A stretch of DNA of 64,000 nt from a virus: IMG/VR virus record IMGVR_UViG_3300027734_000045, positions 1 through 64,000 of that record, one strand, 5' to 3'. Position 1 is the first letter of the stretch. Every line of letters begins with the position of its first letter. A model generated the notes under the pieces. The model was not told where the DNA came from, made no database searches, and was given only the letters and a program-made list of their open reading frames with translations. Of this stretch, positions 1-49,010 are shown one piece after another. A program made the translations under genes and the position numbers.

Positions 1-127
1 TTGAATACCTTGTAAGCCTTGGACTCCTTGAGAACCTGTTGCGCCTTGAGAACCTGTTGCGCCTGTAGTTCCTTGAATACCTTGTAAGCCTTGGACTCCT
101 TGAGAACCTGTTAGGCCTTGTGCGCCT
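1..127. repeat. 127-bp direct repeat, copy 1 (second copy 3118-3244)
   Basis: Bases 1-127 are identical to bases 3118-3244 by direct reading; the next base differs (g versus t). Both lie inside the collagen-repeat part of the fibre gene in the same frame. The copy may extend left of the window. Confidence 0.9.
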
Positions 128-3100
128 GTTGTACCTGTTGTTCCTGTTAGGCCTTGGATACCTTGTGTTCCTTGAGAACCTGTAGCGCCTGTAGTTCCTG
201 TTAGGCCTTGTGCGCCTGTAGTTCCTTGTGTTCCTTGCGAACCTGTAGTTCCTTGTGAGCCTGTTGTTCCTTGTGAGCCTGTGTCGCCTTTATCGCCTGT
301 TCTTACAAAGGTGACTATAATGTCGTCTGAGTTTGCAAATGTGGCTGGGTTTCCAGACACGTAAGAACCAGTTACGGTGAACCAGCCTGTGTTGTTAGTT
401 AATGCTGTGATAGTAAATAATGCAAATACACTGGCATCAAATTTCTTTGCAATTCTAAAGTGACCCTTAATAGCAGAACTAGAGTCGTCAATAGTGTTAA
501 GGAAGCTGGATACATCGGTTGTTGCATCATTACTTGCATCAACATACATCTGAGTTGCAGATGAGATTGTAGCGTTGTTAAATCTTATAAAACCGGTGCC
601 TGGGTCAGCTGCTGTAGTAGTTGTGCTGTAGGTGTAGTCGAAGGTTGCTCCACCAAAGTTACCATCTCTACCTGTAAATCCTTGAATGCCTTGGACTCCT
701 TGAGAACCTGTGGCACCTTGCGCACCTGTGGCGCCTGTAGTTCCTGTTAGGCCTTGGATTCCTTGTGTTCCTTGCGAACCTGTAGTTCCTTGTGAGCCTG
801 TGGCGCCTTGCAGACCTTGCAGACCTTGGATTCCTTGTGCGCCTGTAGTTCCTTGCGCACCTGTTGCGCCTTGAGAACCTGTTGCGCCTGTAGTTCCTTG
901 AATACCTTGGTTTCCCTGAAGACCGGTTGTACCTTGGGTACCGACGTTACCGGCTCTAGCAAATGAAATAACTAATGCTTCTGAGTTGGAAGGTAAGGTT
1001 CCAGAGTAGATAGAGATAGGTACTGTATGCCATCCAGTATTGTTGACAACTGCTCCATTAACAAAAGCCAAAACATAGGTATTATCAGAGTTTGTATTTG
1101 ACTCAATTGTTATCCAGCCTCTGTTAGAACTTGTTGACGCACCCCATGCGTCAATGTATGCACTAACGTCTGCTCCCTCAACAGTAAGTGAGTCAATATA
1201 TAGTTGAGTGACTGAACCTACTGTTGCGTTGTTAAATCTAATTTTTCCTTGCCCTGGGTCTGCAGCTGTGGTGCTGGTATCAAAGCTATATCTGACTCCA
1301 CCTTTATCACCTTGAGTACCAGTTGTTCCTTGGGCTCCAACTGGACTTATAGAATCAAGTGAGCCGTCACCCTTTACATACTGAGCAGAAGTTCCACCTT
1401 GAGTGATGAACTTATCGGCGTTGATGTACTGGAAGTAGTCAATGGAGTTGGTGGTGCCGCCGGTTCCTGACGAGGCAACCAGGGTCGAGTTTGGCTTGTC
1501 GTACACGCAGTTGAGTATTGAGTAGAACCCGTTCAAAACGACTGGTGCGACATTGTTTAGTGCGGAAGTCAGTAGTTGACAGTTTGCTAAAGTAATCACA
1601 CTTGAGGCAGCCGATGTCACGGCATTGGTCACAGCAGCAACGACTACAGAATCTACAAGGCTTAGAGTTCCAGCAGTTAGAACAGGAGCAACGGTGACAG
1701 CACTTTTTACAATCACATTGGCACTAGCGTTGTTGACGGTTATGAGGTTTGGGTTACCACCAAAAATGGCGACTAGACCAGACCCAGTGATGCTTGCGGC
1801 AGCAAGGTCACACAAACGAAGGACAACGTAGTCAGCATTGCTGCTTTTTGTGAAAGTTCCAGAAATTTCACAGTTTAGAATGTTTACGTTTCCCGTGCCC
1901 GTTGGCGTGGTCACGGTCAGGTTGGTCATCTTTAGCCCAGAGATGGTGCAGCCAGTACTCGTGCTCACCGTTCCAGAGATTACGATGTTTCCACCAACAA
2001 GACCAGGTCCAGTTATGGTTGTGTACTGAGTAGTTATTGATGGGCTTTCAGTGTAAGTTCCTGGATGAACAATAATTGTTTTACGTTGTGAACCTACTAA
2101 AGTCAACGCCTTAGTAATAGAAGCGACTGGAGTAAGCAAATCACCATTACCAGTAGTATCATTTCCATCTACTTGACTAACGTGAATTTCGTAGTCGTAG
2201 CCTGTGAAGGTTGTGCCTTGTGCACCTTGAATACCTTGGATTCCTTGCAGACCTTGTAATCCTGTTGCACCTTGAGTTCCAGTTGTACCCTGTGCTCCTG
2301 TAGTTCCTGTGGCACCTGTTGTACCTTGTGCACCTGTGGTGCCTTGAGACCCTGTTAGGCCTTGTAGTCCAGTTAATCCTTGGATACCAGTAGTTCCCTG
2401 CAATCCTTGAACACCTTGAACACCTTGGTCACCGTTACCTCTAAACTCGACTACTACCGAACCGGTACTTATGCTTCCAGAGACGTAAGCAACTGGAATC
2501 TTGTAGTATCCGGTGCCGTTAATTATTGACCCAGTAATGTTAAAAATTATTGAGTTGGTAATTGCAGAGGCTAATAATTGAATTATCAGCTGGCCTTTTA
2601 TGGCTGATGTCGAGTCATCAAAGCTGTTGTACCAGGCTGTTTGGTCAGCGGAAGCTAAGTCGTTTTGGTCGATGTAGATAAAGGTTGTTAACGAGTCGGT
2701 GGCATTGTTAAATCTCATGTTTCCGCTGCCAGGGTCGCTATCAGTGGTAATAGAGCTTAAGGTGTAGCGAACTCCGCCTCGAGCTCCTGTGGCGCTAGTT
2801 CCCTGGATACCTTGCGTACCTTGATTACCTTGGATACCTGTTGTGCCTTGCACGCCCCCAGTACCTTGTACTCCTTGATTACCTTGAATACCTTGAGTGC
2901 CTTGAGCTCCAGTTGCGCCTTGAGTCCCGGTCTGACCTTGAATACCTTGAGTGCCTTGAGCTCCAGTGGTACCTTGCAGACCGTTGGTTCCTTGAGACCC
3001 GGTTAGACCTTGAAGACCGGCTAGTCCTTGAAGACCGTTTGTTCCTTGCGCGCCTGTTGCGCCTGTAGTTCCTTGCGCACCTGTTGCGCCTTGAGAACCT

Positions 3101-3630
3101 GTTGCGCCTGTAGTTCCTTGAATACCTTGTAAGCCTTGGACTCCTTGAGAACCTGTTGCGCCTTGAGAACCTGTTGCGCCTGTAGTTCCTTGAATACCTT
3201 GTAAGCCTTGGACTCCTTGAGAACCTGTTAGGCCTTGTGCGCCTTGAACTCCTTGGAGACCTTGCAGACCTTGAATGCCTTGTGTACCTTGCGCGCCTGT
3301 AGTTCCTTGCAGACCTTGCAGACCTTGCGCGCCTGTGGCACCTTGTGAGCCTGTAGTTCCCTGAAGACCTTGAACTCCTTGGAGACCTTGTGTTCCTTGT
3401 GCGCCTATTAGACCTTGGATTCCTTGCAGACCTTGAACGCCTTGGATTCCTTGTCGACCCTGGACTCCTTGAAGACCTTGAGTACCTTGAAGACCTTGAA
3501 CGCCTTGCGCGCCTTGTGGTCCGCCAATCCCGATTTCGACGTGGTTAGGTTGTTCTTGGACGATAACCTTGTTTACGTCGCGTGGGTTGACTATGACCTT
3601 GTTTGGTTGGTCTTCAAAATGAGATGTCAT
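1..3630 (-). CDS. collagen-like modular tail fibre protein (partial, 3' end outside window)
   Basis: One minus-strand frame stays open from the ATG at 3630 to the window edge, so at least 1,210 residues are encoded. I read the frame through the non-repeat parts and found no stop. The product starts MTSHFEDQPNKVIV and soon enters Gly-X-Gln type collagen repeats (GIQG, GLQG, GVQG). Three copies of a globular module interrupt the repeats, at about 2780-2430, 1320-960 and 660-300, each carrying a DPGSGN..RFNNAT signature. A segment at about 2215-1400 begins DGNDTTGNGDLLTPVASI and looks like a DUF1565/pectate-lyase type beta-helix. Such proteins form phage fibres that contact the host surface; that role is inferred. 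Its start overlaps the upstream gene's stop by one base (TAATG), so translation is probably coupled. Confidence 0.85.
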   Translation of the reverse strand, partial: MTSHFEDQPNKVIVNPRDVNKVIVQEQPNHVEIGIGGPQGAQGVQGLQGTQGLQGVQGRQGIQGVQGLQGIQGLIGAQGTQGLQGVQGLQGTTGSQGATGAQGLQGLQGTTGAQGTQGIQGLQGLQGVQGAQGLTGSQGVQGLQGIQGTTGATGSQGATGSQGVQGLQGIQGTTGATGSQGATGAQGTTGATGAQGTNGLQGLAGLQGLTGSQGTNGLQGTTGAQGTQGIQGQTGTQGATGAQGTQGIQGNQGVQGTGGVQGTTGIQGNQGTQGIQGTSATGARGGVRYTLSSITTDSDPGSGNMRFNNATDSLTTFIYIDQNDLASADQTAWYNSFDDSTSAIKGQLIIQLLASAITNSIIFNITGSIINGTGYYKIPVAYVSGSISTGSVVVEFRGNGDQGVQGVQGLQGTTGIQGLTGLQGLTGSQGTTGAQGTTGATGTTGAQGTTGTQGATGLQGLQGIQGIQGAQGTTFTGYDYEIHVSQVDGNDTTGNGDLLTPVASITKALTLVGSQRKTIIVHPGTYTESPSITTQYTTITGPGLVGGNIVISGTVSTSTGCTISGLKMTNLTVTTPTGTGNVNILNCEISGTFTKSSNADYVVLRLCDLAAASITGSGLVAIFGGNPNLITVNNASANVIVKSAVTVAPVLTAGTLSLVDSVVVAAVTNAVTSAASSVITLANCQLLTSALNNVAPVVLNGFYSILNCVYDKPNSTLVASSGTGGTTNSIDYFQYINADKFITQGGTSAQYVKGDGSLDSISPVGAQGTTGTQGDKGGVRYSFDTSTTAADPGQGKIRFNNATVGSVTQLYIDSLTVEGADVSAYIDAWGASTSSNRGWITIESNTNSDNTYVLAFVNGAVVNNTGWHTVPISIYSGTLPSNSEALVISFARAGNVGTQGTTGLQGNQGIQGTTGATGSQGATGAQGTTGAQGIQGLQGLQGATGSQGTTGSQGTQGIQGLTGTTGATGAQGATGSQGVQGIQGFTGRDGNFGGATFDYTYSTTTTAADPGTGFIRFNNATISSATQMYVDASNDATTDVSSFLNTIDDSSSAIKGHFRIAKKFDASVFALFTITALTNNTGWFTVTGSYVSGNPATFANSDDIIVTFVRTGDKGDTGSQGTTGSQGTTGSQGTQGTTGAQGLTGTTGATGSQGTQGIQGLTGTTGTTGAQGLTGSQGVQGLQGIQGTTGATGSQGATGSQGVQGLQGIQ
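3118..3244. repeat. 127-bp direct repeat, copy 2
   Basis: Identical to 1-127. A shorter match to the same block is also present near 860-912. Long exact repeats 3.1 kb apart in one gene are substrates for recombination that would delete or duplicate fibre modules. Confidence 0.9.
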
Positions 3631-8308: not shown

Positions 8309-9031
8309 TTGAACGACTACGGGGACTACTGGAGCAAGAACACCTTTGCGGCGGCAGAGAGAGTTAGGACCATTAGAAGTCTGCTAAACCTAAAAAACGC
8401 CAGCAGTGTTAGATACGCCAGATTTGGAAGCGCTGGAGATGGTGGTTACGTTTTAGTAGACGACATCCCTTCTGGAGTCTCTTTGGTGTCGTATGGAGTT
8501 GACGTAAACGTAGACTTTGAAAAGCATCTAAGCGACCTAGGTTGCCAGGTAGTGATGTACGACGACTCTGTTGACGGACCGCCGATTGAAATTGACGCGG
8601 TGTTCCATAAGAAGAGAATTGGAGTCCACGCTGGAGAAATCAAGATAGATGAAACTCTAACTGATAACTGTATTCTAAAGATAGACATTGAGGGTTCTGA
8701 GTGGGACGTGCTGGCTGAGGCTAAGGACCTAGGCAAGTGCCGTCAAATAACTATAGAGGCTCACTGGATGCTTGACATAGTGTATGACGCTTTCTACTAT
8801 AAGGTAGTTGAGGCTCTTGAAAATCTAAACAGAACGCACTTTCCAGTGTGGCTGCACGCCAACAACGACCAACCACTGGGAGTTATTGGCGGGCAACCGG
8901 TTCCAAACGTCTTTGAGGTGTTGTTTCTCAATAGAAAAATCTACTCGTACACGGAGGTAGTAGACAGATTCGTTAAGCTAAATGCTCCAAATAATCCGGC
9001 GTTTCCGGACATATGTTTATCGTTTCCATAG
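8309..9031 (+). CDS. FkbM-type SAM-dependent methyltransferase
   Basis: 240 residues from a TTG start one base after the preceding stop. It contains GDGGYVLVDD near the N-terminus and the hallmark CILKIDIEGSEWDVL with the acidic SAM-binding segment, as in FkbM-like enzymes that methylate sugars or small molecules. The C-terminal part has FEVLFLNRKIY, also typical of this group. In phages such enzymes may modify glycans on virions or host surface; the substrate cannot be told. Strong family match, weak substrate knowledge. Confidence 0.8.
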   Translation: MNDYGDYWSKNTFAAAERVRTIRSLLNLKNASSVRYARFGSAGDGGYVLVDDIPSGVSLVSYGVDVNVDFEKHLSDLGCQVVMYDDSVDGPPIEIDAVFHKKRIGVHAGEIKIDETLTDNCILKIDIEGSEWDVLAEAKDLGKCRQITIEAHWMLDIVYDAFYYKVVEALENLNRTHFPVWLHANNDQPLGVIGGQPVPNVFEVLFLNRKIYSYTEVVDRFVKLNAPNNPAFPDICLSFP

Positions 9032-9040
9032 AAAACAGTG

Positions 9041-9046
9041 TATAAT
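9041..9046 (+). promoter_or_regulatory. tmRNA promoter -10
   Basis: AGTGTATAATCG with TATAAT at 9041-9046 sits 42 bases before the mature tmRNA 5' end. Confidence 0.6.
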
Positions 9047-9087
9047 CGTATTGCACCAAAAATTGACAACTAAATAGAGAACAACAA

Positions 9088-9434
9088 GGGGATGACTGGT
9101 TTCGACAGTTGTCTTGATGTTAGTGAAGCAAGCCGAGACGGCCACGCACTTGTAAGTGTGGCAAAAACATAAATGCTGAATCTCGTTCCGCATTCGCTTT
9201 AGCAGCGTAATCTAATTACAACGCTTCGGCCCCTAACAAAGCACTAGTTCTAGGTGGGCAGTTAGGTCTTAAATAAATAGAACAAAACAAAGACTTTTCC
9301 CACGGAGTCTTAAAATCGTGGTAACGTCTAGACGGGTCTGGTAGGTTGTCCGTCTAGTCGCACCTAATCTACCTAAGCTTGTAGAAGAATAACTGAACGT
9401 CAATTGGACCGGGGTTCGATTCCCCGCATCTCCA
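9088..9434 (+). ncRNA. ssrA: transfer-messenger RNA (tmRNA)
   Basis: The 5' end GGGGATG pairs with CATCTCC at 9427-9433 to form the tRNA-like acceptor stem, and the T arm is CCGGGGTTCGATTCCCCG. The tag frame can be read from GGC at 9160 to TAA at 9208-9210 as GKNINAESRSAFALAA; the AFALAA ending is the degradation signal seen in actinobacterial tags. CCA is not encoded. tmRNA rescues stalled ribosomes and tags unfinished proteins for proteolysis by Clp. A phage-encoded copy could replace the host one during infection. The exact resume codon is inferred. Confidence 0.93.
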
Positions 9435-9493
9435 CGCTTGTAGACAAAGGAGCGTAAAGCGGTCTACCCGTCCTAGGCAACGGAAATCTCCAA

Positions 9494-9629: not shown

Positions 9630-9700
9630 TGGTTCTAAGTGTTACGGCAGCACGGCGGTCTCCAACACCGCAGGCCTGGGTTCGACTCCCAGAGAACCGG
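9630..9700 (+). tRNA. tRNA-Trp (CCA)
   Basis: Acceptor GGTTCT / AGAACC (plus a terminal wobble), short D stem GTG/CAC, anticodon stem GCGGT/ACCGC with loop CTCCAAC (anticodon CCA at 9662-9664), and T arm CTGGG-TTCGACT-CCCAG. CCA end is not encoded. The D stem is only 3 bp and position 8 is A, so it is somewhat unusual. Confidence 0.75.
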
Positions 9701-9834
9701 CGAAGCTCATAGACATAAACTAATTAGCTCATGGAGCACTTGTCTATTGACGTGGTTAGGATGCATCCGGTTGCAAACGGTCTCCTATAAAGCGTCAGAT
9801 CGCGCCGGCTGGTTGAGCTAGGAAGGTGCCGGCG

Positions 9835-21271: not shown

Positions 21272-21312
21272 GCGGACGGTGCCCGAGACTCTCCCCAGTA
21301 GGTGCCGTCCGT
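21272..21312. promoter_or_regulatory. hairpin in leader of 21332
   Basis: CGGACGG (21273-21279) pairs with CCGTCCG (21305-21311) within a GC-rich stretch. The gap 21170-21331 marks a visible shift from AT-rich to GC-rich sequence and holds no gene. Confidence 0.4.
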
Positions 21313-21331
21313 TCCGTTTTACATTTGCCTA

Positions 21332-22249
21332 ATGGAAAATGATAAAGAACTTGCTGCGTTCGGTGCTCCAGTCGAGGAGACTCCAATTATCGAAATCGAC
21401 GAGCCAACGAACCTTCGCCCCGACCTCTCGGAAATCGGCATCGTGGAAGCGGAGCGAGGCGTCTGCGAGGACACCTACGAAAACCGCTCCATTCTTCGCC
21501 GAGCGAAGATGGGCTGGGACACCGTGTACGCGAGCAATGGCGTGCCAACCGGACTAATCATGGCTCGCTCAGACGCGATGAACAAGGAGCGTAGGCTCCT
21601 CTCACTCGCCGAGAAGAAACCGATTATGGTCGACCCAAACGATAAGAACTCGGATTACCTAACCGGCTTGGACCTCATCGTGGAGAGTGCCTCAGACTAC
21701 CTCGTTCCGCCCTGGGTAATTGGAGCAACCAAGATGTGGCTAAAGGAGCAGGACGAACCCCAGCTCTCAGCTAAGAGAAAACCCACCGCACTTCCTCACC
21801 GCTGTCGCGCGGTGAAGGACGACGGAATCCGCTGTATGCTTTGGACCTCCGGCCGCCCGAAGGACGACGGCCTCTGCCGCGTCCACCTCCGCACCCAGTC
21901 TCGGAAACCGAGCGATGACATCGAACGTGCCCGCCAGCGGCTTATGCAGTCCGCTCCATTTGCGGTGAACGTCCTCGAGGAACTAATGGAGACCGCGGAA
22001 TCCGAGCCTGTAAAACTTAAGGCGGCAACGGAGATTCTGGACCGCGCCGGGGTAAGAGGTGGTGTAGAGTTAGATACGACCGTAAGTATCGACGTCCGCC
22101 CAGCGGCCGCGGTAATCGCGGAACGGTTGCAACGGCTTGGTCTGGCTGCAAGTCAGGCAGCCGCCAGGCTCGTGGATTCAGGAGTCGAGGTTCCCGTAGA
22201 CGCAGAGATCGTGGTTGAAGAGGAGAAGGAAGAAGAGAATGAAGGATAG
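21332..22249 (+). CDS. unknown phage protein with zinc-knuckle and helical C-terminus
   Basis: 305 residues from the ATG at 21332 (a GTG ten codons upstream is possible but lies in the hairpin). A central HRCRAVKDDGIRCMLWTSGR...CRVHL is a Cys/His cluster. The C-terminal half (KLKAATEILDRAGVRGGVEL) resembles the helical region of small terminase-like phage proteins, and the tail is glutamate-rich. It may be a packaging or DNA-recognition protein. Codon use is more GC-rich than in the flanks. Confidence 0.5.
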   Translation: MENDKELAAFGAPVEETPIIEIDEPTNLRPDLSEIGIVEAERGVCEDTYENRSILRRAKMGWDTVYASNGVPTGLIMARSDAMNKERRLLSLAEKKPIMVDPNDKNSDYLTGLDLIVESASDYLVPPWVIGATKMWLKEQDEPQLSAKRKPTALPHRCRAVKDDGIRCMLWTSGRPKDDGLCRVHLRTQSRKPSDDIERARQRLMQSAPFAVNVLEELMETAESEPVKLKAATEILDRAGVRGGVELDTTVSIDVRPAAAVIAERLQRLGLAASQAAARLVDSGVEVPVDAEIVVEEEKEEENEG

Positions 22250-22412
22250 CGAAATCCGAGAACTTGCGGCAACGGCTCGCGCCCTGGCGGAGGTCCTCAC
22301 CGGGGACGTCTCCCTAGCGTCCACCCGGGAGGAGCACATCCGGCTTACGGCTCGTGCAAATGAAGCCCAGACCCTAGCCACTTCCCTGGAGGAAGTGACC
22401 GATGAACCTTAA
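22239..22412 (+). CDS. small helical protein, 57 residues
   Basis: MKDSEIRELAATARALAEVL, alanine/glutamate-rich and probably all helical. Overlaps both neighbours by about 11 bases, with AGGAAGAAGAG before the ATG. Unknown. Confidence 0.5.
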   Translation: MKDSEIRELAATARALAEVLTGDVSLASTREEHIRLTARANEAQTLATSLEEVTDEP

Positions 22413-23202
22413 CCTTCGGCTAGAGGTTCAAGGTTTCACCTCCTCGAAGGTTCTCCGCTCCAAGTTTGTGGAGCAGGCGCTCTCATACGAGGGGCAGCAG
22501 GCAATGGAGCGTGGAGGGATTTCCACCTTTGGTTCCCGGGTTGGCTACGGCAGTGCGCCCTGGGACGGTGCATTTGTAGACGTTGTGGGCCGCGAGGCGG
22601 GCGTTTACCTCCCGTCCTGTGTTTCCACCTCCGCCGCGCTTTCCGAGTTCATACTGGACGACCGGGTACGTTCTCGCCCCAGGGTGGGCGACCTAGTCTT
22701 TTTCGCCGTTTCGTCCGAGGCGTTTGGCCAACCCCGGCTCGGAATCGTGGTTTCCGTGGAGGGATGGGAGCGAAGCGGCAGGTTCATCACCATCGAGGGT
22801 AACTCCTCCTCCGGCCTACCCCGGAGCAACGATCTTCCTACCGGGGTCTTCCGCCGCACTCACTTCAACACGGAGGTTCTCGCCTTCGCTCGCCCCAGAT
22901 TCCGAGCCTTAAATTCCGTGAAACCGGTTTCAGACAAGGTTGACACGCCTGTTGTCAACTTTTCCTACCTCACCTCCTCGCGGAAGAACAAGCACATCCG
23001 CGCCGTTCAGCTCGCCCTGGCACAGGCCGTGGGCTTACGCGGGTACGAACCGGGGAGCTGGTGCCGGCTCACGGTTAGCGCCTTTGCGCGCTACCAACGC
23101 CGCATCGGCTTCGCCGGCAGGGACGCGACGGGCGAGCCAAACCACACGGCCATAGCGCGCCTAGCGGAGCAGACCGGGTTGTTTGTTATCGAAAAGTTAT
23201 AA
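22402..23202 (+). CDS. CHAP-like protein lacking catalytic residues, with peptidoglycan-binding-like C-terminus
   Basis: 266 residues. The N-terminal 150 follow the CHAP amidase layout: FGSRVGYGSAPWDGAFVDVV where active enzymes have PWCxxFV, and PRVGDLVFF...RLGIVVSVEG where active ones have HVGIV. Both the cysteine (here Asp) and histidine (here Arg) are replaced, so hydrolase activity is unlikely. Residues about 200-266 (LTVSAFARYQRRIGFAGRDA) resemble a peptidoglycan-binding repeat. It may be a wall-binding virion protein. Confidence 0.65.
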   Translation: MNLNLRLEVQGFTSSKVLRSKFVEQALSYEGQQAMERGGISTFGSRVGYGSAPWDGAFVDVVGREAGVYLPSCVSTSAALSEFILDDRVRSRPRVGDLVFFAVSSEAFGQPRLGIVVSVEGWERSGRFITIEGNSSSGLPRSNDLPTGVFRRTHFNTEVLAFARPRFRALNSVKPVSDKVDTPVVNFSYLTSSRKNKHIRAVQLALAQAVGLRGYEPGSWCRLTVSAFARYQRRIGFAGRDATGEPNHTAIARLAEQTGLFVIEKL

Positions 23203-23248: not shown

Positions 23249-23287
23249 GTTATTACGCGGAAAAACAAACGCGGGTTGGAGAGACGG

Positions 23288-23488
23288 ATGGCAATAAAGA
23301 AAACCATTTGGATTGTGGACTACCGGGACGAAGCCGGGAACGCCAAGTACGTGGCACGGCAAGCCGACACCGAGGCGGAACTCCGCGGGCTGATAGCCAG
23401 GGAGTCGCCGGGCTCCAAGGTGGAGCGGGTGTGGCTCTTCATGGAGCCGCAGGAACCGGCCGCAACCCGGGAGCCGTCGGAGACCTAA
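23288..23488 (+). CDS. unknown small protein, 66 residues
   Basis: MAIKKTIWIVDYRDEAGNAK then ARQADTEAELRGLIAR. It has a beta-rich N-terminus and one helix, no cysteine. GGAGAGACGG ribosome site. It is the only gene under the promoter at 23243 before the hairpin array. Not recognised. Confidence 0.6.
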   Translation: MAIKKTIWIVDYRDEAGNAKYVARQADTEAELRGLIARESPGSKVERVWLFMEPQEPAATREPSET

Positions 23489-23559
23489 CCGGGCATTAGT
23501 TTTCCGGGCGAAGTCTCCAAGGGGTTGGAAGTTGGGCTCGGAATTGGTCGCGGGTTAAC

Positions 23560-23945
23560 CGGGTTCAGTGAAACCCGGACCCGCGGCTCACACTTTCGCC
23601 GGGTTCAACCCGGGGAGCACTCGGAAAGCAGCCGGGCTGCCAAATTCCGAGCGTTTGCAACCCGGGGACAGGGGAATCTCTGCCGGGCTGCCTTTTTCTC
23701 GGAAATGCAACCCGGGGGCAGGTAAACCTGCGCCGGGCTGTGTTTTTTGCAACGTGCAACCCGGGGGGACTAAATCCGTGCGCCGGGCATCACTTTTCGA
23801 AAGTGCAACCCGGGGGGCACGGAATTAGCGACGGGCTGCCTTTTTTGAAGTGCAACCCGGGGGGCACGGAATTAGCGACGGGCTGCCTTTTTTGAAGTGC
23901 AACCCGGGGGAGGTGCACAAGTGCGACGGGCTGTGTTTTTGGGTT
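23560..23945 (+). repeat. tandem array of terminator-like GC hairpins, 47-50 bp period
   Basis: GCAACCCGG recurs at about 23657, 23707, 23756, 23805, 23852 and 23899, and CGGGCTG (or CGGGCAT) at about 23632, 23683, 23733, 23783, 23832, 23879 and 23926. In each unit GCA-a-CCCG can pair with CGGG-c-TGC, and a T-run follows the second arm in most units. The last two 47-bp units are identical. The left edge has perfect palindromes such as CCGGGTT-C-AACCCGG. No ORF in it has a ribosome site. Confidence 0.75.
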
Positions 23946-23966
23946 GCTCCAATATTTATTATGAAA

Positions 23967-23998
23967 TTTCGCCTTTTCAGGCGAAACCAGGTTATAAT
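23967..23998 (+). promoter_or_regulatory. promoter with overlapping operator-like inverted repeat (drives 24058)
   Basis: TTTCGCC-TTTTCA-GGCGAAA (23967-23986) stands directly before CCAGGTTATAATCG (TATAAT 23993-23998). The inverted repeat covers the -35 to -20 area, unlike other module copies, so this copy may be repressed by a dimeric regulator. Confidence 0.65.
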
Positions 23999-24057: not shown

Positions 24058-24669
24058 ATGACAACACCAAGTAAAAAATTAAGTCCTGGACTTGCTACTT
24101 TTATAGAAGAGCGAGTCTTTAATTCTCTGCTTTTTCGAGAAGAGATCCAAAATATTCTGAAAAAGCAATCGCAACCTTTAACAATTCCAGAAATCAAGGC
24201 ACTTGTTTCAAAGGAAACTGGGCGCAACGTTGACAAGATGACAATGTACACGCACGTCAAAGAGCTCATCAACGAAGGAGCTTTAGTCTCTCGCGTCGAA
24301 ACTATCGAAGAGCGTGCATTGCGCGCCAAAAATAGGGTTACGACAGGAAAGTTTGCGACTCTTTATATTACTCCGCGCACTTGGAGCCAAGACGTTCCAG
24401 CGCGCACTGTAGCTGAAGCAGTCCCTGGAGTAGTTCTCTCCTCCACCAGCGATCGTCGTCCAAGAAAACCAAAGGCGAAAAAGCGTGGTCGTCCAATTGG
24501 AAGCAAGAACAGACCTAAGACCGAAGCCAAAACAGACAACCTGCACGACCTCGTTGCGCAAGTTGTTAAGGCTCACCAAACTTCTATCTCGCAAGAGCTG
24601 GAGGAAACCAAGGGAAAACTGGAGTTGGTGACGAAGACTCTCTCCGAGCTTCTTCAAAAAATCAGTTAG
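24058..24669 (+). CDS. winged-helix protein with AT-hook
   Basis: 203 residues. The N-terminal half (PLTIPEIKALVSKETGRNVD and VDKMTMYTHVKELINEGALV) is a winged helix-turn-helix. KAKKRGRPIGSKNRPK at about 137-152 is an AT-hook (RGRP core) for minor-groove binding. The last 50 residues form a coiled coil. It is the first gene after the hairpin array and may be the main regulator of the 24-48 kb region, whose AT-rich promoter boxes would suit an AT-hook protein (inference). Confidence 0.75.
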   Translation: MTTPSKKLSPGLATFIEERVFNSLLFREEIQNILKKQSQPLTIPEIKALVSKETGRNVDKMTMYTHVKELINEGALVSRVETIEERALRAKNRVTTGKFATLYITPRTWSQDVPARTVAEAVPGVVLSSTSDRRPRKPKAKKRGRPIGSKNRPKTEAKTDNLHDLVAQVVKAHQTSISQELEETKGKLELVTKTLSELLQKIS

Positions 24670-43609: not shown

Positions 43610-44188
43610 ATGAATGCGATTACAAAACAAAATCACAAGCTTCCAACGACTGTAGCTTTCGTCTTCAAAGAAATCGCCACAACGCGAGAGCTAAGAGACA
43701 ACTACATCTCTGTTCTTAGAGAAAATGAATGGACTTTACAGTCGATTGCAGATTGCTGCGAACTCACTAGGGAGAGAGTCAGACAGCTTGCTTCTCGGAA
43801 ATCAGACCCCGGAGTAGTCTCCGAACTCATTCGCCTTGGGGCTGTGATTCCGACTCCACCGGAGAAACCTAAACGGGAAGTTGCCTTCAAGCCGGAAATA
43901 AAACCGGAGACCCTAGAGAAATTGCTAGAACTTCAGCCGCTTGCGCAACAAGTTCGCTCAAATAGCACGAAGTTCCGGGAAGAAGCTGAAGTCTACACGG
44001 CTCTTTTGTTTGACGCGTATAAAAACCAGGGAGTTTCTCTGTATCGGCTTGCAAAACTTCTCGGAGTTACTCATGGGGCGATAAGATTTAGGCTGGCGAG
44101 ATACGGATACATAAAACCTCAAGGCGGAAGCAGCAAAGTTTACGCTCTCGTAAAATCAGAAAACAGGGTGAAAATCTCAAATGGCTAA
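43610..44188 (+). CDS. two-HTH protein upstream of terminase, small-terminase candidate
   Basis: 192 residues. The first HTH (TLQSIADCCELTRERVRQLA) looks like sigma region 4; the second (GVSLYRLAKLLGVTHGAIRF preceded by LQPLAQQVRSNSTKF) matches the domain in 7535-7996 and 49309-49809. It overlaps the large terminase start by 8 bases, the place of the small terminase subunit. Function is inferred from place and the DNA-binding motifs. Confidence 0.65.
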   Translation: MNAITKQNHKLPTTVAFVFKEIATTRELRDNYISVLRENEWTLQSIADCCELTRERVRQLASRKSDPGVVSELIRLGAVIPTPPEKPKREVAFKPEIKPETLEKLLELQPLAQQVRSNSTKFREEAEVYTALLFDAYKNQGVSLYRLAKLLGVTHGAIRFRLARYGYIKPQGGSSKVYALVKSENRVKISNG

Positions 44189-45578
44189 AAGCATTATGGA
44201 ACAGTTAGCTCTTTTGCCGGAAGCGGAGAGATTAGAGATTCTTGCGGGCATGGACCCTGATACTTTGCTGTGGGATTGGTCGGTATGGGGAAGACCAGAA
44301 CAGCAAGCGCCTCAGGGTGAGTGGTCTATTTGGATGTATCTAGCCGGAAGAGGCGCGGGAAAAACGAGAGCTGCAGCGGAGTGGATTCGTGAAGAAGCAA
44401 AGTACACTACAACTGGGCAGAGAAGATTCGCCCTCGTTGCGAGAACTGCAGCAGACGTTAGAGATGTCATCGTTGAAGGTGAGTCGGGAATCATTTCCGT
44501 TACTCCGCCTTCCGAACGCCCTCTTTACGAGCCTTCGAAACGTCGACTCACTTGGCCAAATGGAAATACGGCAACTTGCTTCACAGCTGACGAACCTGAT
44601 TCACTCCGTGGACCTCAGTTTACTCACGCTTGGGGAGATGAGGTTGCGGCATGGAGGCAAACTCCGGACGCTGCCGGGATGACTGCTTTCGACAACTTGC
44701 GCGTTGGAACTCGTTTGGGCTCAAATCCAAAAATCATGATAACCACTACACCAAAAAGAGTGCCCTTGCTCTATCAGCTTTTAGAAGAAGAGAGAAAGAC
44801 GGGAAGAGTCGTCGTAACTCGTGGGTCGACTTTGGATAACTCAGGGAACTTATCAAGCTCTTACATCGATGCTATCACAGGAGTTTACGCTGGTACGAGA
44901 CTCGCGGCTCAAGAGCTTTACGGTGAAATGTTAGATAACGTTGAAGGCGCTCTGTGGACTGAAGAAATGATCGATAAAGGAAGAGAAACTGTCTTTCCAA
45001 TTGGATCTCCATTGAGAGTAATCGGTGTCGACCCTTCGGTTGCCGAGAACCCTAGAGACGAATGCGGTATCGTTGTCGTTGCTTCAACTGCAGAAAGAGA
45101 TTTATATAAACGACACGCTTGGGTTTTAGAAGACGCAACGATTCTCGGCTCGCCAGAAACTTGGGCGAATAAAGTAGTCGCCATGGCTCGTAAATGGGGA
45201 TGTCCAGTCGTTGCTGAAGTGAATCAGGGAGGCGCATTAGTTAGAAACGCAATTAACGCAATCGACCCTAACATCAAAGTTTTCGAAGTTCACTCAAAGT
45301 ACGGGAAAGCTCTTCGCGCAGAACCGGTGACTCTTGCTTACGAACAGAACAGAGTTCATCACGTAAACTACTTACCCGAACTTGAATCTCAAATGTATTC
45401 TTGGATTCCGGGAGAAGGAAAGTCTCCAGACCGAGTCGATGCTTTAGTTCACGCGCTTACTGCTCTGCTAATTAAACCACCGCAAGGTTTCGTCGGTGGA
45501 AAGATTACCGCAAAGTCAGTTGCTCACAGAAAGTTCGATACGGGAAGAGGCGGCGGAGGAATCTTCAAAGTTCGCTAA
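44181..45578 (+). CDS. terL: terminase large subunit
   Basis: 465 residues. Walker A AGRGAGKTRAAAEW (about 55-68), Walker B HAWGDEVAAW, and C-terminal nuclease motifs VIGVDPSVAENPRDE and RVDALVHALTAL. This is the packaging motor that cuts and translocates phage DNA into the prohead. Length is normal. The next gene on the plus strand in the packaging order, the portal, lies 5 kb away because of the inserted minus-strand block. A terminator follows at once. Confidence 0.95.
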   Translation: MAKSIMEQLALLPEAERLEILAGMDPDTLLWDWSVWGRPEQQAPQGEWSIWMYLAGRGAGKTRAAAEWIREEAKYTTTGQRRFALVARTAADVRDVIVEGESGIISVTPPSERPLYEPSKRRLTWPNGNTATCFTADEPDSLRGPQFTHAWGDEVAAWRQTPDAAGMTAFDNLRVGTRLGSNPKIMITTTPKRVPLLYQLLEEERKTGRVVVTRGSTLDNSGNLSSSYIDAITGVYAGTRLAAQELYGEMLDNVEGALWTEEMIDKGRETVFPIGSPLRVIGVDPSVAENPRDECGIVVVASTAERDLYKRHAWVLEDATILGSPETWANKVVAMARKWGCPVVAEVNQGGALVRNAINAIDPNIKVFEVHSKYGKALRAEPVTLAYEQNRVHHVNYLPELESQMYSWIPGEGKSPDRVDALVHALTALLIKPPQGFVGGKITAKSVAHRKFDTGRGGGGIFKVR

Positions 45579-46227: not shown

Positions 46228-46521
46228 TTAGATTTCGGAGACTTTCTTTGCGAAGATTTCATACTCTTCTTTTGAAGTCAAGAATCTCTTTACGCATTCG
46301 TTTCCAAGTCTCTTCACTTTAGCGTCTGCTTGCTCTTCTGCGAACGGAACTAAAGAATCTGTTTTCCAATTCCAACTAACTAACCAACCAGAATCTTCTG
46401 TCATCGCCTTTGCGCAATGTTCGCACCAAGTTTCAAAGTTGTTTTTGTAGTTTCTCTTCATGTTCATTTCGTACTGAGTGTGAGCTCCGAATCCATAACA
46501 CTTGATTTCGTTTACGGTCAT
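46228..46521 (-). CDS. unknown protein, 97 residues (insulated unit 3)
   Basis: MTVNEIKCYGFGAHTQYEMN with a CEHCAKAMTEDSGW knuckle; mixed alpha/beta. AAAGGAAAAAGCAA ribosome site. The CxxC suggests a metal site. Single gene between its own promoter (46564-46604) and terminator. Confidence 0.6.
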   Translation of the reverse strand: MTVNEIKCYGFGAHTQYEMNMKRNYKNNFETWCEHCAKAMTEDSGWLVSWNWKTDSLVPFAEEQADAKVKRLGNECVKRFLTSKEEYEIFAKKVSEI

Positions 46522-46563
46522 TTGCTTTTTCCTTTTGTCGTTTTGTTTTTTGTTTCTAAGATT

Positions 46564-46604
46564 ATTATAACAGGAACTTAGCAAAATAAACACACTTTAG
46601 CAAA
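46564..46604 (-). promoter_or_regulatory. minus-strand promoter module copy (drives 46521)
   Basis: Minus strand: TTTGCTAAAGTGTGTTTATT, then GTTCCTGTTATAATAATC; TATAAT at 46569-46564. Confidence 0.8.
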
Positions 46605-46640
46605 GATTTTTAGACAAGTTATCATTTTGTTATAAAGTTG

Positions 46641-46825
46641 ATTCCGGCTTGAACTACGGTGAAAGTTCGCACTTCGATGAGAAGTTTTCTACTTTTTCTG
46701 AAGTCTTTCGATTTCAAAAAGTTCTAAGTTTTCTGCGAAAGCAAAAAGCTTGAAGAGAGTAGAGTTGAGATTTCTCTTTTCTTAGATTTCTGAAGTCTTC
46801 AGATTTTTCTTCGTTGAGAGAGTTA
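46641..46825. repeat. low-complexity polypyrimidine spacer
   Basis: Repeats of TTTCTGAAGTCTT(C/T) and related words without an ORF. It begins with attccggcttgaactacggtgaaagtt, which also starts the spacer at 47263. Confidence 0.7.
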
Positions 46826-46830
46826 AAAAG

Positions 46831-46856
46831 AATCGACCGCATTTCTGTGATCGATT
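46831..46856 (-). terminator. terminator of unit 2 (minus strand)
   Basis: Minus strand AATCGATC...GGTCGATT followed by CTTTTT, 16 bases after the stop of the gene at 46872. Confidence 0.75.
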
Positions 46857-46871
46857 TCTTCTCGCTTTCGC

Positions 46872-47144
46872 TTATTCCCAAATGCTCGAGAAGTCAGTTC
46901 TCTCTTTTTTGTTCGTCAAGACGATTTCTTGTCGAGTGATTGGATTTTTAGCAATGATTCCGTACTTGTATTTTGCATCTTCTCCAAAGACTTTGACGTT
47001 TGTTTCGATAACTTTGTACTTTGTTGAGAAGTAGAAGACTGTGTCTCCAACTTTCTTTTCTCCAAGTGAGAACATTGCTCTTGCCAACTTGTTTAATTCT
47101 GGATTGCTGTTGTAAAGTACGTTGTCTTTGATTACTTCGTTCAT
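46872..47144 (-). CDS. unknown protein, 90 residues (insulated unit 2)
   Basis: MNEVIKDNVLYNSNPELNKL, then GEKKVGDTVFYFSTKYKVIE: lysine-rich, beta-strand-rich, no cysteine. AAAGGAAAAGCGA ribosome site. Own promoter and terminator. Unknown. Confidence 0.6.
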   Translation of the reverse strand: MNEVIKDNVLYNSNPELNKLARAMFSLGEKKVGDTVFYFSTKYKVIETNVKVFGEDAKYKYGIIAKNPITRQEIVLTNKKERTDFSSIWE

Positions 47145-47186
47145 TCGCTTTTCCTTTTGTCGTTTATTTATTTTTGGTACATAATC

Positions 47187-47228
47187 ATTATAACATGAAC
47201 TTAGCAAAAATACTGCACATTTAGCAAA
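47187..47228 (-). promoter_or_regulatory. minus-strand promoter module copy (drives 47144)
   Basis: Minus strand: TTTGCTAAATGTGCAGTATT, then TTCATGTTATAATGATT; TATAAT at 47192-47187. TTATAACAAAATGATAAC lies further upstream (about 47258-47240). Confidence 0.82.
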
Positions 47229-47262
47229 GATTTTCTACTTGTTATCATTTTGTTATAATCAC

Positions 47263-48130
47263 TATTCCGGCTTGAACTACGGTGAAAGTTTGCGGTAAAA
47301 GCTCACACTCTCTGAAGTTTCTGAAGTTTCTGAAGTTTCTGAAGTCTTCAGATTTCGCTTTCACTTTTGAGCTCTCTGTCGAAAGCAAAGTTGCGATTTT
47401 GAGTTCTCTGTCGAAAGCTGAGATTTTGTTTAGAGCTCTCAATCGAAAGCTGAGATTCATTTTTCTCTCTCTGTCGATTTCTTAGTTTCGATTTAGATCT
47501 CTTTATCAAAAGTAGAGATTCGATTTCTGAAGTCTTTAGAGTTCTTTAGATTTCTTTCGATTTCTTAGAAGTTTCTAAAGTCTTCAGATTTTCGATTTTG
47601 TTTTTAGATTTCTCTTTCGATTTCTGAAGTCTTTAGATTCTTTAGATTCTTTAGAAGATTTTCTAAGTTTTCTAAAGTTTTCTGAAGTTTCTAAAGTTCT
47701 CTGAAGTTTTTCTTTCGCTACTAAAGTTCTCTGAAGTTTCTAAAGTTCTCTAAAGTCTTTCGATTTCTTAGAAGTTTCTAAAGTCTTTCGATTTCTCTTT
47801 CGATTTCTGAAGTCTTTCGATTTCTGCTTTTCTCTTTTGACTTCTCTTTTGATTTCTGAAGTTTTTAGATTTCTTCAAAGTCTCTGAAGTCTTTAGATTC
47901 GTTTAGTTGATTGCGGTAAATGATTGCGGTGAATTCGAACTCTCTTCAAAGTTTCTGAAGTCTTTCGATTTCTGAAGTCTTCAGATTTTTGATTTTAGTT
48001 TTTCGATTTCTGAAGTCTTCAGATTTCTTTCGCAACTTTAGATTTCTTTAGATTTCTTTCGCAACTTTAGATTTCTTTCGCAACTTTAGATTTCTGTTTT
48101 TCTTTTTCTCTTTCTCTTTAGAGTTAAGAA
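47263..48130. repeat. 870-bp low-complexity spacer of short degenerate repeats
   Basis: Words such as TTTCTGAAGTCTTCAGATTT, GAAGTTTCTGAAG, TTTCGATTTCT and CTCTGTCGAAAGCTGAGATT recur with variations. The plus strand is pyrimidine-biased. There is no frame with a start, ribosome site and plausible composition. It lies outside the promoter-terminator units. Confidence 0.8.
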
Positions 48131-48134
48131 AGAA

Positions 48135-48156
48135 GCGACCGTTTTTCAACGATCGC
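48135..48156 (-). terminator. terminator of unit 1 (minus strand)
   Basis: Minus strand GCGA-CGTT...AACG-TCGC followed by TTCTTTCTT, 25 bases after the stop of the gene at 48181. Confidence 0.75.
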
Positions 48157-48180
48157 AACTTTTGTTGAGTGATTTCTTAC

Positions 48181-48426
48181 TTACACAACGTAAGCAAGAA
48201 CGTATCCACCATTCAATTTCTCTTGAACTTTTTCTTGAGCGATTGAAAGTGCACTTTGGTTTGAGTAAGCGTTTACAACTTTGTTCTGTCTCTGTGATTT
48301 CTCTGCCATTCCCCAAGACATTGAAACTTTATTATCAACAACGATTACTTCATAGATTTTCTTCTTGCCATTTAGTCCACGGTTTCCGTCACTGACCTTT
48401 AGTAGACACCATTTCTTTTCGTTCAT
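48181..48426 (-). CDS. WGR-domain-like protein, paralogue of 28051 (insulated unit 1)
   Basis: 81 residues: KKWCLLKVSDGNRGLNGKKK, IYEVIVVDNKVSMSWGMAEK, and an end NGGYVLAY. It aligns over its full length with the protein at 28051-28296 (K-W-LL..SDG.RG.NGKKK.YE..V.DN....SWGMAEKS). AAAGGAAAAAA ribosome site. Nucleic-acid binding is inferred from the WGR similarity. Confidence 0.65.
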   Translation of the reverse strand: MNEKKWCLLKVSDGNRGLNGKKKIYEVIVVDNKVSMSWGMAEKSQRQNKVVNAYSNQSALSIAQEKVQEKLNGGYVLAYVV

Positions 48427-48474
48427 TTTTTTCCTTTTGTCGTTTTGTCGTTTATTTATTTTTGGTACATAATC

Positions 48475-48515
48475 ATTATACACTATTTTTAGCAAAATAG
48501 CTGCACTTTAGCAAA
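48475..48515 (-). promoter_or_regulatory. minus-strand promoter module copy (drives 48426)
   Basis: Minus strand: TTTGCTAAAGTGCAGC, then AATAGTGTATAATGATT; TATAAT at 48480-48475. Confidence 0.78.
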
Positions 48516-48559
48516 GATTTTTGCTAAGTTATCACTTTGTTATAAAGAGTTATTTTGCG

Positions 48560-49010
48560 GTGATTTGCGGTGATTTCTTGATTTTTCTCGTATTTTTGAA
48601 CAAATGTTCAGGTCGCTAAGATTCATTATAATCAACTGTCTTTTGTTCTTGACTTTGATTTCTCTTTGTCATTTTGTGGAGCAATTCTGGGCGACATGAC
48701 AAAAGGGCACAAAAAGCTACAATGAGCGCAAAGTCTCTTCTTTTCTCAATTTCTCACTTTCTTCGCACTCTCTCACTCTCACTCACTTTCGTCGACTTTC
48801 TCTTCTTTTCTCTCGCTCTCGCTTTCTCTCACTCTCTCACTCTCACTTTCTCTCGCTATTTTTCTCTCGCTCTCGCTCTCGCTCTCTTCTTCTCTCACTT
48901 TGGCTCACACAAAAGCTCACGCAAAAGCGAAAGACTTTTCGACTTCTCGCTCTCTTCTTCTCTCACTCTAAGCGCTTTCATGAGCTTCTTTTTTCTTTAG
49001 AGAGTCTCGG
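48560..49010. repeat. CTCTCA/CTCGCT low-complexity region
   Basis: Long runs of CTCTCA, CTCGCT and CACTTTC words between the minus-strand block and the plus-strand structural genes. No supported gene; the one long frame has only Leu/Ser/Phe repeats. Confidence 0.75.

What the first reader, a model, noticed from the sequence alone, without database searches (positions are those of the whole stretch)
23560..23945. Array of seven terminator-like hairpins with 47-50 bp period
Each unit pairs GCAaCCCG with CGGGcTGC, and a T-run follows the second arm, so each looks like an intrinsic terminator. The array lies where the GC-rich block ends and the AT-rich small-gene region begins. A row of terminators could be a strong transcription barrier. 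Other options are iterons or a structured RNA. The loop and the inter-unit parts vary while the stems persist.
Basis: partly seen in the sequence, partly recalled or inferred. Interest (0 to 1): 0.7.

Follow-up and report, generated by a model that had tools for sequence, protein, structure and literature searches.

The report
Oriented repeat array near phage end

Summary
The array is real: seven units at 23605-23940 (start spacing 47-52 bp) plus a degenerate eighth at 23462. It is probably not a row of terminators. In the eight units the boxes CAACCCGGG (A) and CGGGC (B) never vary, while the outer stem breaks without compensation. Most units fold no better than shuffled sequence. A relative (L017) carries a six-unit array at the same place, with boxes GCAACCTGC and GCCGGAC, no shared hairpin, and A-runs where the window has T-runs.

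The array is the tandem form of a family-wide signal. In 64 non-redundant relatives the endolysin gene is loaded, on the + strand only and in all frames, with A-type (GCCTGG) and B-type (ACGG) boxes, far above synonymous-codon shuffles. A precedes B by 25-32 bp (96 pairs, 25 expected). In cultured Microbacterium phage Zooman the first 2.6 kb of the record, the start of its 17,079-bp terminal repeat, holds AACCG 37 times on + and 0 on -.

Best guess, inferred only: repeated, oriented recognition sites near the genome end for the phage's own DNA-handling proteins, most likely terminase (packaging). An iteron-type replication origin is the main rival. Binding and function are untested.

The parts
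21302..22249 (+). small-terminase-like gene (terS); ATG alternative start at 21332; left part of the motif-rich zone
   Evidence: 67% and 35% identical to DSL-LC01 and Pumpernickel homologues; Cece homologue annotated 'terminase small subunit'; profile hits PDB 7joq 'Small Terminase subunit' E=7.8e-4; weak phrog_2538 terminase small subunit E=0.006
22402..23202 (+). endolysin gene; in relatives this gene carries the densest oriented A/B boxes
   Evidence: phrog_9589 endolysin E=1.7e-9; tblastn to 8 phage records; motif profile
23287..23488 (+). small ORF of unknown function, absent between endolysin and HTH gene in DSL-LC01; its end overlaps the degenerate unit
23462..23502 (+). degenerate unit 0 (GCAACCCGGGA...ACCGGGC)
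23549..23585 (+). imperfect palindrome CGCGGGTTAACCGGG...CCCGGACCCGCG; a strong local hairpin about one period before unit 1, not of the A-B type
   Evidence: fold -24.8 kcal/mol, z -3.14 for 23549-23600
23605..23648 (+). array unit 1 (TCAACCCGGGG...GCCGGGC; no T-run)
23657..23698 (+). array unit 2
23707..23748 (+). array unit 3
23756..23797 (+). array unit 4 (3' arm CGGGCATC, outer pairing lost)
23805..23845 (+). array unit 5
23852..23892 (+). array unit 6 (identical to unit 5)
23899..23940 (+). array unit 7
23951..23998 (+). AT-rich stretch, small hairpin TTTCGCCTTTTCAGGCGAAA (23967-23986) without T-run, and TATAAT (23993-23998) in the same GTTATAATNGAATC-like context as promoter-like sites of DSL-LC01
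   Evidence: direct reading; promoter call is inference
24058..24669 (+). winged-helix (WH_Rok-like) DNA-binding protein gene, first gene behind the array
   Evidence: Pfam PF23159 E=9.4e-6, just under its cut-off; homologue in DSL-LC01
44181..45578 (+). terminase large subunit gene, 22 kb from terS as in DSL-LC01 and Zooman
   Evidence: phrog_979 E=6.8e-24

Best explanation
The array is a noncoding tandem block of an oriented two-part DNA motif: box A (C[AG][AG]CC[TCG]..., here CAACCCGGG), about 20 bp, then box B (here [AC]CGGGC), with an A- or T-run between units. The same motif family fills the terS-to-endolysin segment of related phages. In cultured relatives that segment is the left end of the genome, inside the long direct terminal repeat. 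Shown: the motif, its one-strand orientation, the A-B spacing, its independence of reading frame and RNA structure, and its place at the deposited genome start of Zooman. Inferred: these are repeated sites for the phage's own DNA-handling machinery, most likely the small terminase, which would bind many sites in one orientation (perhaps wrapping GC-rich boxes alternating with bendable A/T runs) and so mark where and in which direction packaging of the concatemer begins. Box sequence differs between lineages, as expected if it follows a diverging phage-encoded binding protein. In the window phage and in L017 the zone has grown past the endolysin stop as a tandem array.
For: Same-place array in L017: A boxes at 8948-9195 spaced 50, 46, 54, 47 and 50, with a B box in each unit. 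64 non-redundant loci aligned at the endolysin stop: ACGG 4.1, 5.3 and 3.3 per 300 bp over the last 900 bp against about 1 in most flanking bins, reverse complement 0.9, 0.7 and 0.45; GGCCTGG 0.45, 0.66 and 0.47 against 0, 0.03 and 0.03. Synonymous-codon shuffles: GCCTGG 125 against 36.2 (z 16.6), ACGG 729 against 517 (z 16.9), their reverse complements not enriched, all three frames used. A-to-B start distance 25-32: 96 against about 25 expected, 0 of 1000 random shifts; 38 of 56 loci have a pair at 25-31. RNA fold z about -0.5 and -0.6 on the two strands, 48 loci. Zooman: AACCG 37/0 (+/-) in bases 1-2600, 171/201 in the remaining 173 kb of one genome unit; exact terminal repeat of 17,079 bp; the record starts 62 bp before terS. 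A3Wally 29/1, Pumpernickel 22/3, Cece 16/3 in bases 1-2600. terS lies at the left edge of the zone. SPP1 pac is a known case of direct repeats overlapping the start of a small terminase gene, with A/T runs and GC pairs proposed to favour wrapping (passages of PMC4737164 and PMC6316719).
Against: No binding, cleavage or packaging data. The densest part is 1-2.5 kb inside the end, in and behind the endolysin gene, not at the cut, and it is longer than the pac regions in the passages I read. In SF6 the terminase DNA-binding domain showed little sequence preference for the pac repeats (PMC4737164 passages). The terS model was poor (pTM 0.32) and its fold search useless. An unbiased test put the zone first in only 17 of 52 loci (2.0 expected), and the window's own pre-array zone was not outstanding: 14 of 44 other stretches scored as high. 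Remote Arthrobacter phage Mimi shows no AACCG excess (4/5). That the window phage has a terminal repeat starting near 21.25 kb is inferred from gene order only.
Confidence: 0.4

Rival explanations
1. Iteron-type replication origin: the array is a set of direct repeats bound by a phage replication initiator, next to an AT-rich unwinding stretch (23951-23975).
For: Tandem, same-orientation repeats of about 48 bp next to an AT-rich stretch in both arrays. SPP1 origins combine direct repeats with an AT-rich region, one of them inside a gene (PMC6316719 passage).
Against: In most relatives the boxes are spread over about 1 kb of endolysin coding sequence without a tandem array; TRF finds the post-endolysin array only in the window and one related lineage among 142 loci. 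No initiator gene identified next to it, and no composition or skew test of origin function was made.
Confidence: 0.22
2. Row of intrinsic terminators insulating the early promoter at about 23.99 kb from transcription coming from terS-endolysin.
For: T-run of 4 or more after the second arm in 6 of 7 units; the array sits between genes just upstream of a promoter-like TATAAT; 89.8% of stem cells pair, more than when partners are slid; the whole region folds better than shuffles, z -5.7, as repeats with palindromic GC cores would.
Against: Units mostly no better than shuffles; zero covariation with a nearly invariant 5' arm; the related array has A-runs and no shared hairpin; loops of about 20 nt; nothing found by the terminator scan.
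Confidence: 0.13
3. Sites for a strand-specific nicking system, of the type that leaves nicks in one strand of phage DNA.
For: Precedent in print: 14 nicks of phage tf all lie in one strand at TACT/RTGMC, and T5 and phiKMV-like phages have other consensus sites (passages of PMC3517423). One-strand orientation fits.
Against: In tf the sites are spread over the genome (as I read the passages), whereas here they are crowded into one 2.5-kb zone; the two-box 25-32-bp spacing has no counterpart there.
Confidence: 0.08
4. RNA-level signal: boxes in the terS-endolysin transcript bound by an RNA-binding protein (timing of lysis, message stability).
For: Orientation always follows the transcribed strand; in the window and L017 the zone ends close to the next promoter-like site.
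Against: No excess RNA structure. In L066, L082 and L110 boxes continue for several hundred bases behind the endolysin, past promoter-like TTGACA sites in L110, which favours DNA (reading, not counted).
Confidence: 0.1
5. Chi-like or other recombination sites that help the terminal repeats recombine.
For: Oriented short motif near a genome end, within a terminal repeat.
Against: The rest of the Zooman genome shows no strand bias of that kind for AACCG (171/201); boxes differ between related phages. Host genomes were not tested.
Confidence: 0.05

Closest known systems
SPP1/SF6 pac region (PMC4737164, PMC6316719; passages read)
   Same: direct repeats at and in the small terminase gene; A/T runs alternating with GC pairs; small terminase as the expected binder
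   Different: here some 10-40 short boxes over about 2.5 kb reaching through the endolysin gene, with a two-box unit and lineage-specific sequence; the cultured relatives have long direct terminal repeats, not headful ends
Phage replication origins with iterons (SPP1 oriL/oriR, PMC6316719 passage)
   Same: same-orientation tandem repeats next to AT-rich DNA
   Different: in most relatives boxes are dispersed in coding sequence rather than a compact array; no initiator found
One-strand nick sites of phages tf, phiKMV-like and T5 (PMC3517423 passages)
   Same: short motif confined to one strand; T5 also has long terminal repeats
   Different: spread over the genome in tf and T5, clustered here
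T5 injection stop signal (PMC13250531, one passage)
   Same: repeats and inverted repeats tied to the part of the genome that enters first
   Different: described there by multiple repeats, palindromes and DnaA boxes; no oriented two-box motif is mentioned in that passage
Tandem intrinsic terminators
   Same: GC-rich arms followed by T-runs in the window array
   Different: no covariation, long loops, T-runs not conserved in the related array
Intergenic repeats of Microbacterium phages, clusters EC, EG and EI (PMC7302621 passages)
   Same: repeated motifs in actinobacteriophages
   Different: those lie in short intergenic regions, many at fixed distances upstream of start codons; these lie in coding sequence and one array

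Membership tests
intrinsic terminator array | GC-rich stem with short loop directly before a T-run | tested here: inconclusive
   T-run in 6 of 7 units, but loop about 20 nt and no hit in the scan
intrinsic terminator array | hairpins more stable than shuffled sequence | tested here: not met
   five of units 2-7 have z between -0.74 and 0.86, one -2.46
intrinsic terminator array | stem kept by compensatory changes between copies | tested here: not met
   0 of 7 pairs with change on both sides among 7 distinct units
intrinsic terminator array | transcripts end in the array | not testable with these tools
   no RNA data
pac / terminase recognition region | lies at or beside the small terminase gene | tested here: met
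   terS at 21302-22249, zone to 23940; same in relatives
pac / terminase recognition region | lies at a packaged genome end | tested here: inconclusive
   met for the deposited linear record of Zooman with exact 17,079-bp terminal repeat; ends of the window phage unknown
pac / terminase recognition region | repeated sites in one orientation | tested here: met
pac / terminase recognition region | bound by small terminase and needed for packaging | not testable with these tools
   needs binding and packaging assays
iteron replication origin | tandem same-orientation repeats beside an AT-rich stretch | tested here: met
   window and L017 arrays
iteron replication origin | initiator protein gene and origin activity | not tested
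   no initiator identified in the genes scanned
structured RNA family | match to a known family or conserved fold | tested here: not met
   Rfam gathering hits in the window are only tmRNA and tRNA; no covariation
protein-coding repeat | one conserved frame through the repeats | tested here: not met
   window array spacings 52, 50, 49, 49, 47, 47 are not multiples of 3; boxes use all three frames in the endolysin genes

The most novel reading that the evidence does not exclude
A so far undescribed class of genome-end signal in large actinobacteriophages with long terminal repeats: an oriented, two-box motif repeated tens of times over about 2.5 kb from the small terminase gene through the endolysin gene, written into coding sequence by synonymous choice, rapidly changing in sequence between lineages but keeping A-B geometry, and sometimes expanded into a tandem array; it tells the packaging or DNA-entry machinery which end and which direction.
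Probability: 0.38. Interest if true: 0.8.

Novelty: new variant of a known kind. Interest (0 to 1): 0.62.

Why it matters
How terminase recognises phage DNA at the ends of long terminal repeats is, as far as I know, poorly understood. If these boxes are the recognition sites, the phages offer many natural variants of site and protein side by side, including a cultured, host-tractable one (Zooman on Microbacterium foliorum), so the recognition code could be read and tested directly. It also shows a case where a signal of tens of copies hides in coding sequence and is seen only by comparing the two strands.

Tried and rejected
Rfam search (only tmRNA and tRNA). Exact unit pattern in IMG/VR: 11 single hits, judged chance because none had more than one match. 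HTH-gene search in IMG/VR: no relative. Mobile-element reading of the dispersed boxes, first suggested by L004: set aside because boxes are too short and too uniform in orientation. Hairpin reading of A-B: rejected. Helical phasing of AACCG in Zooman: only weak maxima between 9.5 and 11.9 bp periods, no conclusion. Structure of terS: low confidence, fold search without significant match. Whether box sequence follows terS divergence more than overall kinship was not tested, because the zone overlaps the genes being compared. Literature: no description of such an oriented zone surfaced (listings; passages of six papers read); the held library is open-licence PMC only.

Rows dropped: for the 64-locus set, loci with an endolysin match under 200 residues or on the other strand were left out, near-duplicates (over half of 12-mers shared) were merged and Pumpernickel (L003) was left out by hand and looked at separately. 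One search used the first 48 of 64; the 52 of 64 with at least 9 kb; the 56 of 64 having both boxes in the last 900 bp. For the terS alignments, rows with stops (L044, L050, L057, L081) were left out, and not all passing rows were used.

Full report
1. Observation. The array is there. Units start at 23605, 23657, 23707, 23756, 23805, 23852 and 23899, with spacings of 52 to 47 bp; a degenerate unit at 23462 lies inside the end of a small ORF. The core GCAACCCGGGG with at most one mismatch occurs 9 times in the window, against 0.42 expected. Tandem Repeats Finder finds the same block. The window is part of a 121-kb virus record related to Actinomycetia phage DSL-LC01 from a lake. The array lies between an endolysin gene and a winged-helix gene; DSL-LC01 has only 99 bp there.

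2. Not a row of terminators, on present evidence. Folded one by one, five of units 2-7 are no more stable than shuffled sequence. Counting pairs over eight units (seven distinct), the inner four pairs never vary, the outer three vary on one side or break, and none changes on both sides. The terminator scan reports nothing in the array. In favour of terminators, a T-run follows six of seven units, the stem register pairs much better than slid registers (89.8% against at most 49%), and the whole stretch folds better than shuffles (z -5.7). A GC-rich repeat with a palindromic CCCGGG core would also do that.

3. A second array at the same place. Profiles of terS and endolysin brought in 80 and 48 related IMG/VR loci. 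In L017 (the same lineage also appears as L016, L102 and L103) the space behind the endolysin holds six units whose A boxes, GCAACCTGC, start at 8948, 8998, 9044, 9098, 9145 and 9195, each with a GCCGGAC or GTCGGGC box behind it. Period, place and box order agree with the window. The homopolymer between units is an A-run in five of six cases and a T-run in one, where the window has T-runs, and the six units share no hairpin. So a sequence pair is shared, not a hairpin with a T-run. Among 142 loci no other noncoding array lies directly behind the endolysin stop; L131 has a lysine/alanine-rich repeat 300 bp further on that reads as coding (and reading).

4. The array belongs to a family-wide signal. 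Aligning 64 non-redundant loci at the endolysin stop, the + strand of the last 900 bp carries ACGG at 3.3-5.3 per 300 bp, against 0.5-0.9 for its reverse complement there and about 1 in most flanking bins, and GGCCTGG at 0.45-0.66 against 0-0.03; both fall at the stop codon. ACGG stays mildly raised behind the stop (2.2, 2.1 and 1.5 per 300 bp between +300 and +1200) and over terS (2.6-3.0). Synonymous-codon shuffles of the 64 genes give 36 GCCTGG where 125 are seen, and 517 ACGG where 729 are seen; reverse complements are not enriched (CCGT 112 against 132; CCAGGC 18 against 22), and all frames are used. CAGGC alone is also raised (131 against 90), which I cannot explain beyond overlap with palindromic forms. 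The A box (GCCTG[GC]) is followed by ACGG at 25-32 bp 96 times where random shifts give about 25, 0 of 1000 reaching it, and 38 of 56 loci have such a pair at 25-31. In the window array GCAACCC and [AC]CGGGC start 26-27 bp apart (23-24 if counted in the register of GCCTGG); in L017 GCAACCTGC and its B box start 20-32 bp apart. The endolysin messages show no excess structure on either strand. In an unbiased search for the most strand-biased 6-mer, the zone was the best of its locus in 17 of 52 loci (2.0 expected), and many winners are ACGG or GCCTG forms; the window's own zone before the array was not outstanding. In the window the CGGG count climbs from 1 to 12 per 300 bp between 21.9 and 24.0 kb and then is 0.

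5. At a genome end in cultured relatives. Microbacterium phages Pumpernickel, Zooman, Cece and A3Wally start their linear records about 60 bp before the terS homologue, and the endolysin appears twice. Joining the fetched pieces of Zooman in a script shows an exact terminal repeat of 17,079 bp; AACCG occurs 37 times on + and never on - in bases 1-2600, against 171 and 201 in the other 173 kb. AACCGT in bases 1001-2500 is the most extreme strand-biased 6-mer of any 1.5-kb window of that genome. A3Wally (29/1), Pumpernickel (22/3) and Cece (16/3) agree; the remote Arthrobacter phage Mimi (4/5) does not. CAACCG fits the A box seen as CAACCCGG (window), CAACCTGC (L017), CAGCCTGG and CGGCCTGG (others). 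The window phage has the same order, terS, endolysin, small genes, then terL at 44181-45578 and portal at 50534-52267, so I infer, but have not shown, that its packaged end lies near 21.25 kb.

6. What it does. Shown: an oriented, two-box DNA-level signal, repeated many times, from terS through the endolysin, at the deposited genome end of cultured relatives. Inferred: a protein of the phage reads it. The small terminase is the first candidate because the signal begins in its gene, because pac regions of other phages are repeats at that gene (SPP1/SF6), and because packaging is directional. The gene is a terminase small subunit by annotation in Cece and by a profile match to PDB 7joq (E 7.8e-4); four invariant residues C158, C168, C182 and H185 suggest a metal site (inference). 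Against it: the densest part lies 1-2.5 kb inside the end, SF6 terminase showed little sequence preference, and no structure could be modelled well. A replication origin with iterons is the main rival because the arrays abut AT-rich DNA. Nick sites, an RNA-level signal, Chi-like sites and terminators remain possible with lower weight.

7. Hosts. A terS relative sits in a contig binned as Aquiluna, which with Microbacterium suggests hosts in or near Microbacteriaceae (family placement recalled).

8. Verdict. Observation confirmed; terminator reading not supported; a real, oriented, family-wide genome-end signal of undetermined function, most likely packaging-related.

Noticed in passing
window 46400-48900: AT-rich (33-37% GC) repeat field between terL and portal; GATTTCT 24 times on + and 0 on - in 1.5 kb. 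DSL-LC01 has CACGCA 29/0 at the same gene interval, record about 45.3-46.8 kb: a second oriented, lineage-specific repeat zone.
   Followed up: partly
window 1-3500: collagen-like 18/9-bp CCTTG repeats, probably a tail-fibre-like gene on the - strand
   Followed up: no
window 9088-9437 and 9630-9701: phage-encoded tmRNA with tag AESRSAFALAA and a tRNA-Trp
   Followed up: no
L021, L022, L027, L097, L034, L025, L142, spacer behind endolysin: other lineage-specific short hairpin-like elements: ACTTCCGTGTAGAAGT forms, CTTCTTAGTA...TACTAAGAAG, AACTTTT...AAAAGTT
   Followed up: no
L004 2650-3130: GTCCGGCCTGG...GCAGACGG pairs inside the endolysin gene in different frames; the first hint of the two-box signal
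   Followed up: yes
Zooman record 71.0-72.5 kb and 95.5-97 kb (L149): two more local strand-biased 6-mers: CGGAGC 12/0 and GGTTAT 9/0
   Followed up: no
L153 (Arthrobacter phage Mimi) 2250-4500: ATGCGG 7/0 and TGCGGT 8/0 around a ParB-like gene near the left end
   Followed up: no
L066, L082, L110 behind the endolysin: noncoding stretches rich in AACGG and GGTGCCTG..TTTTCCA that look like less regular versions of the zone extension
   Followed up: partly
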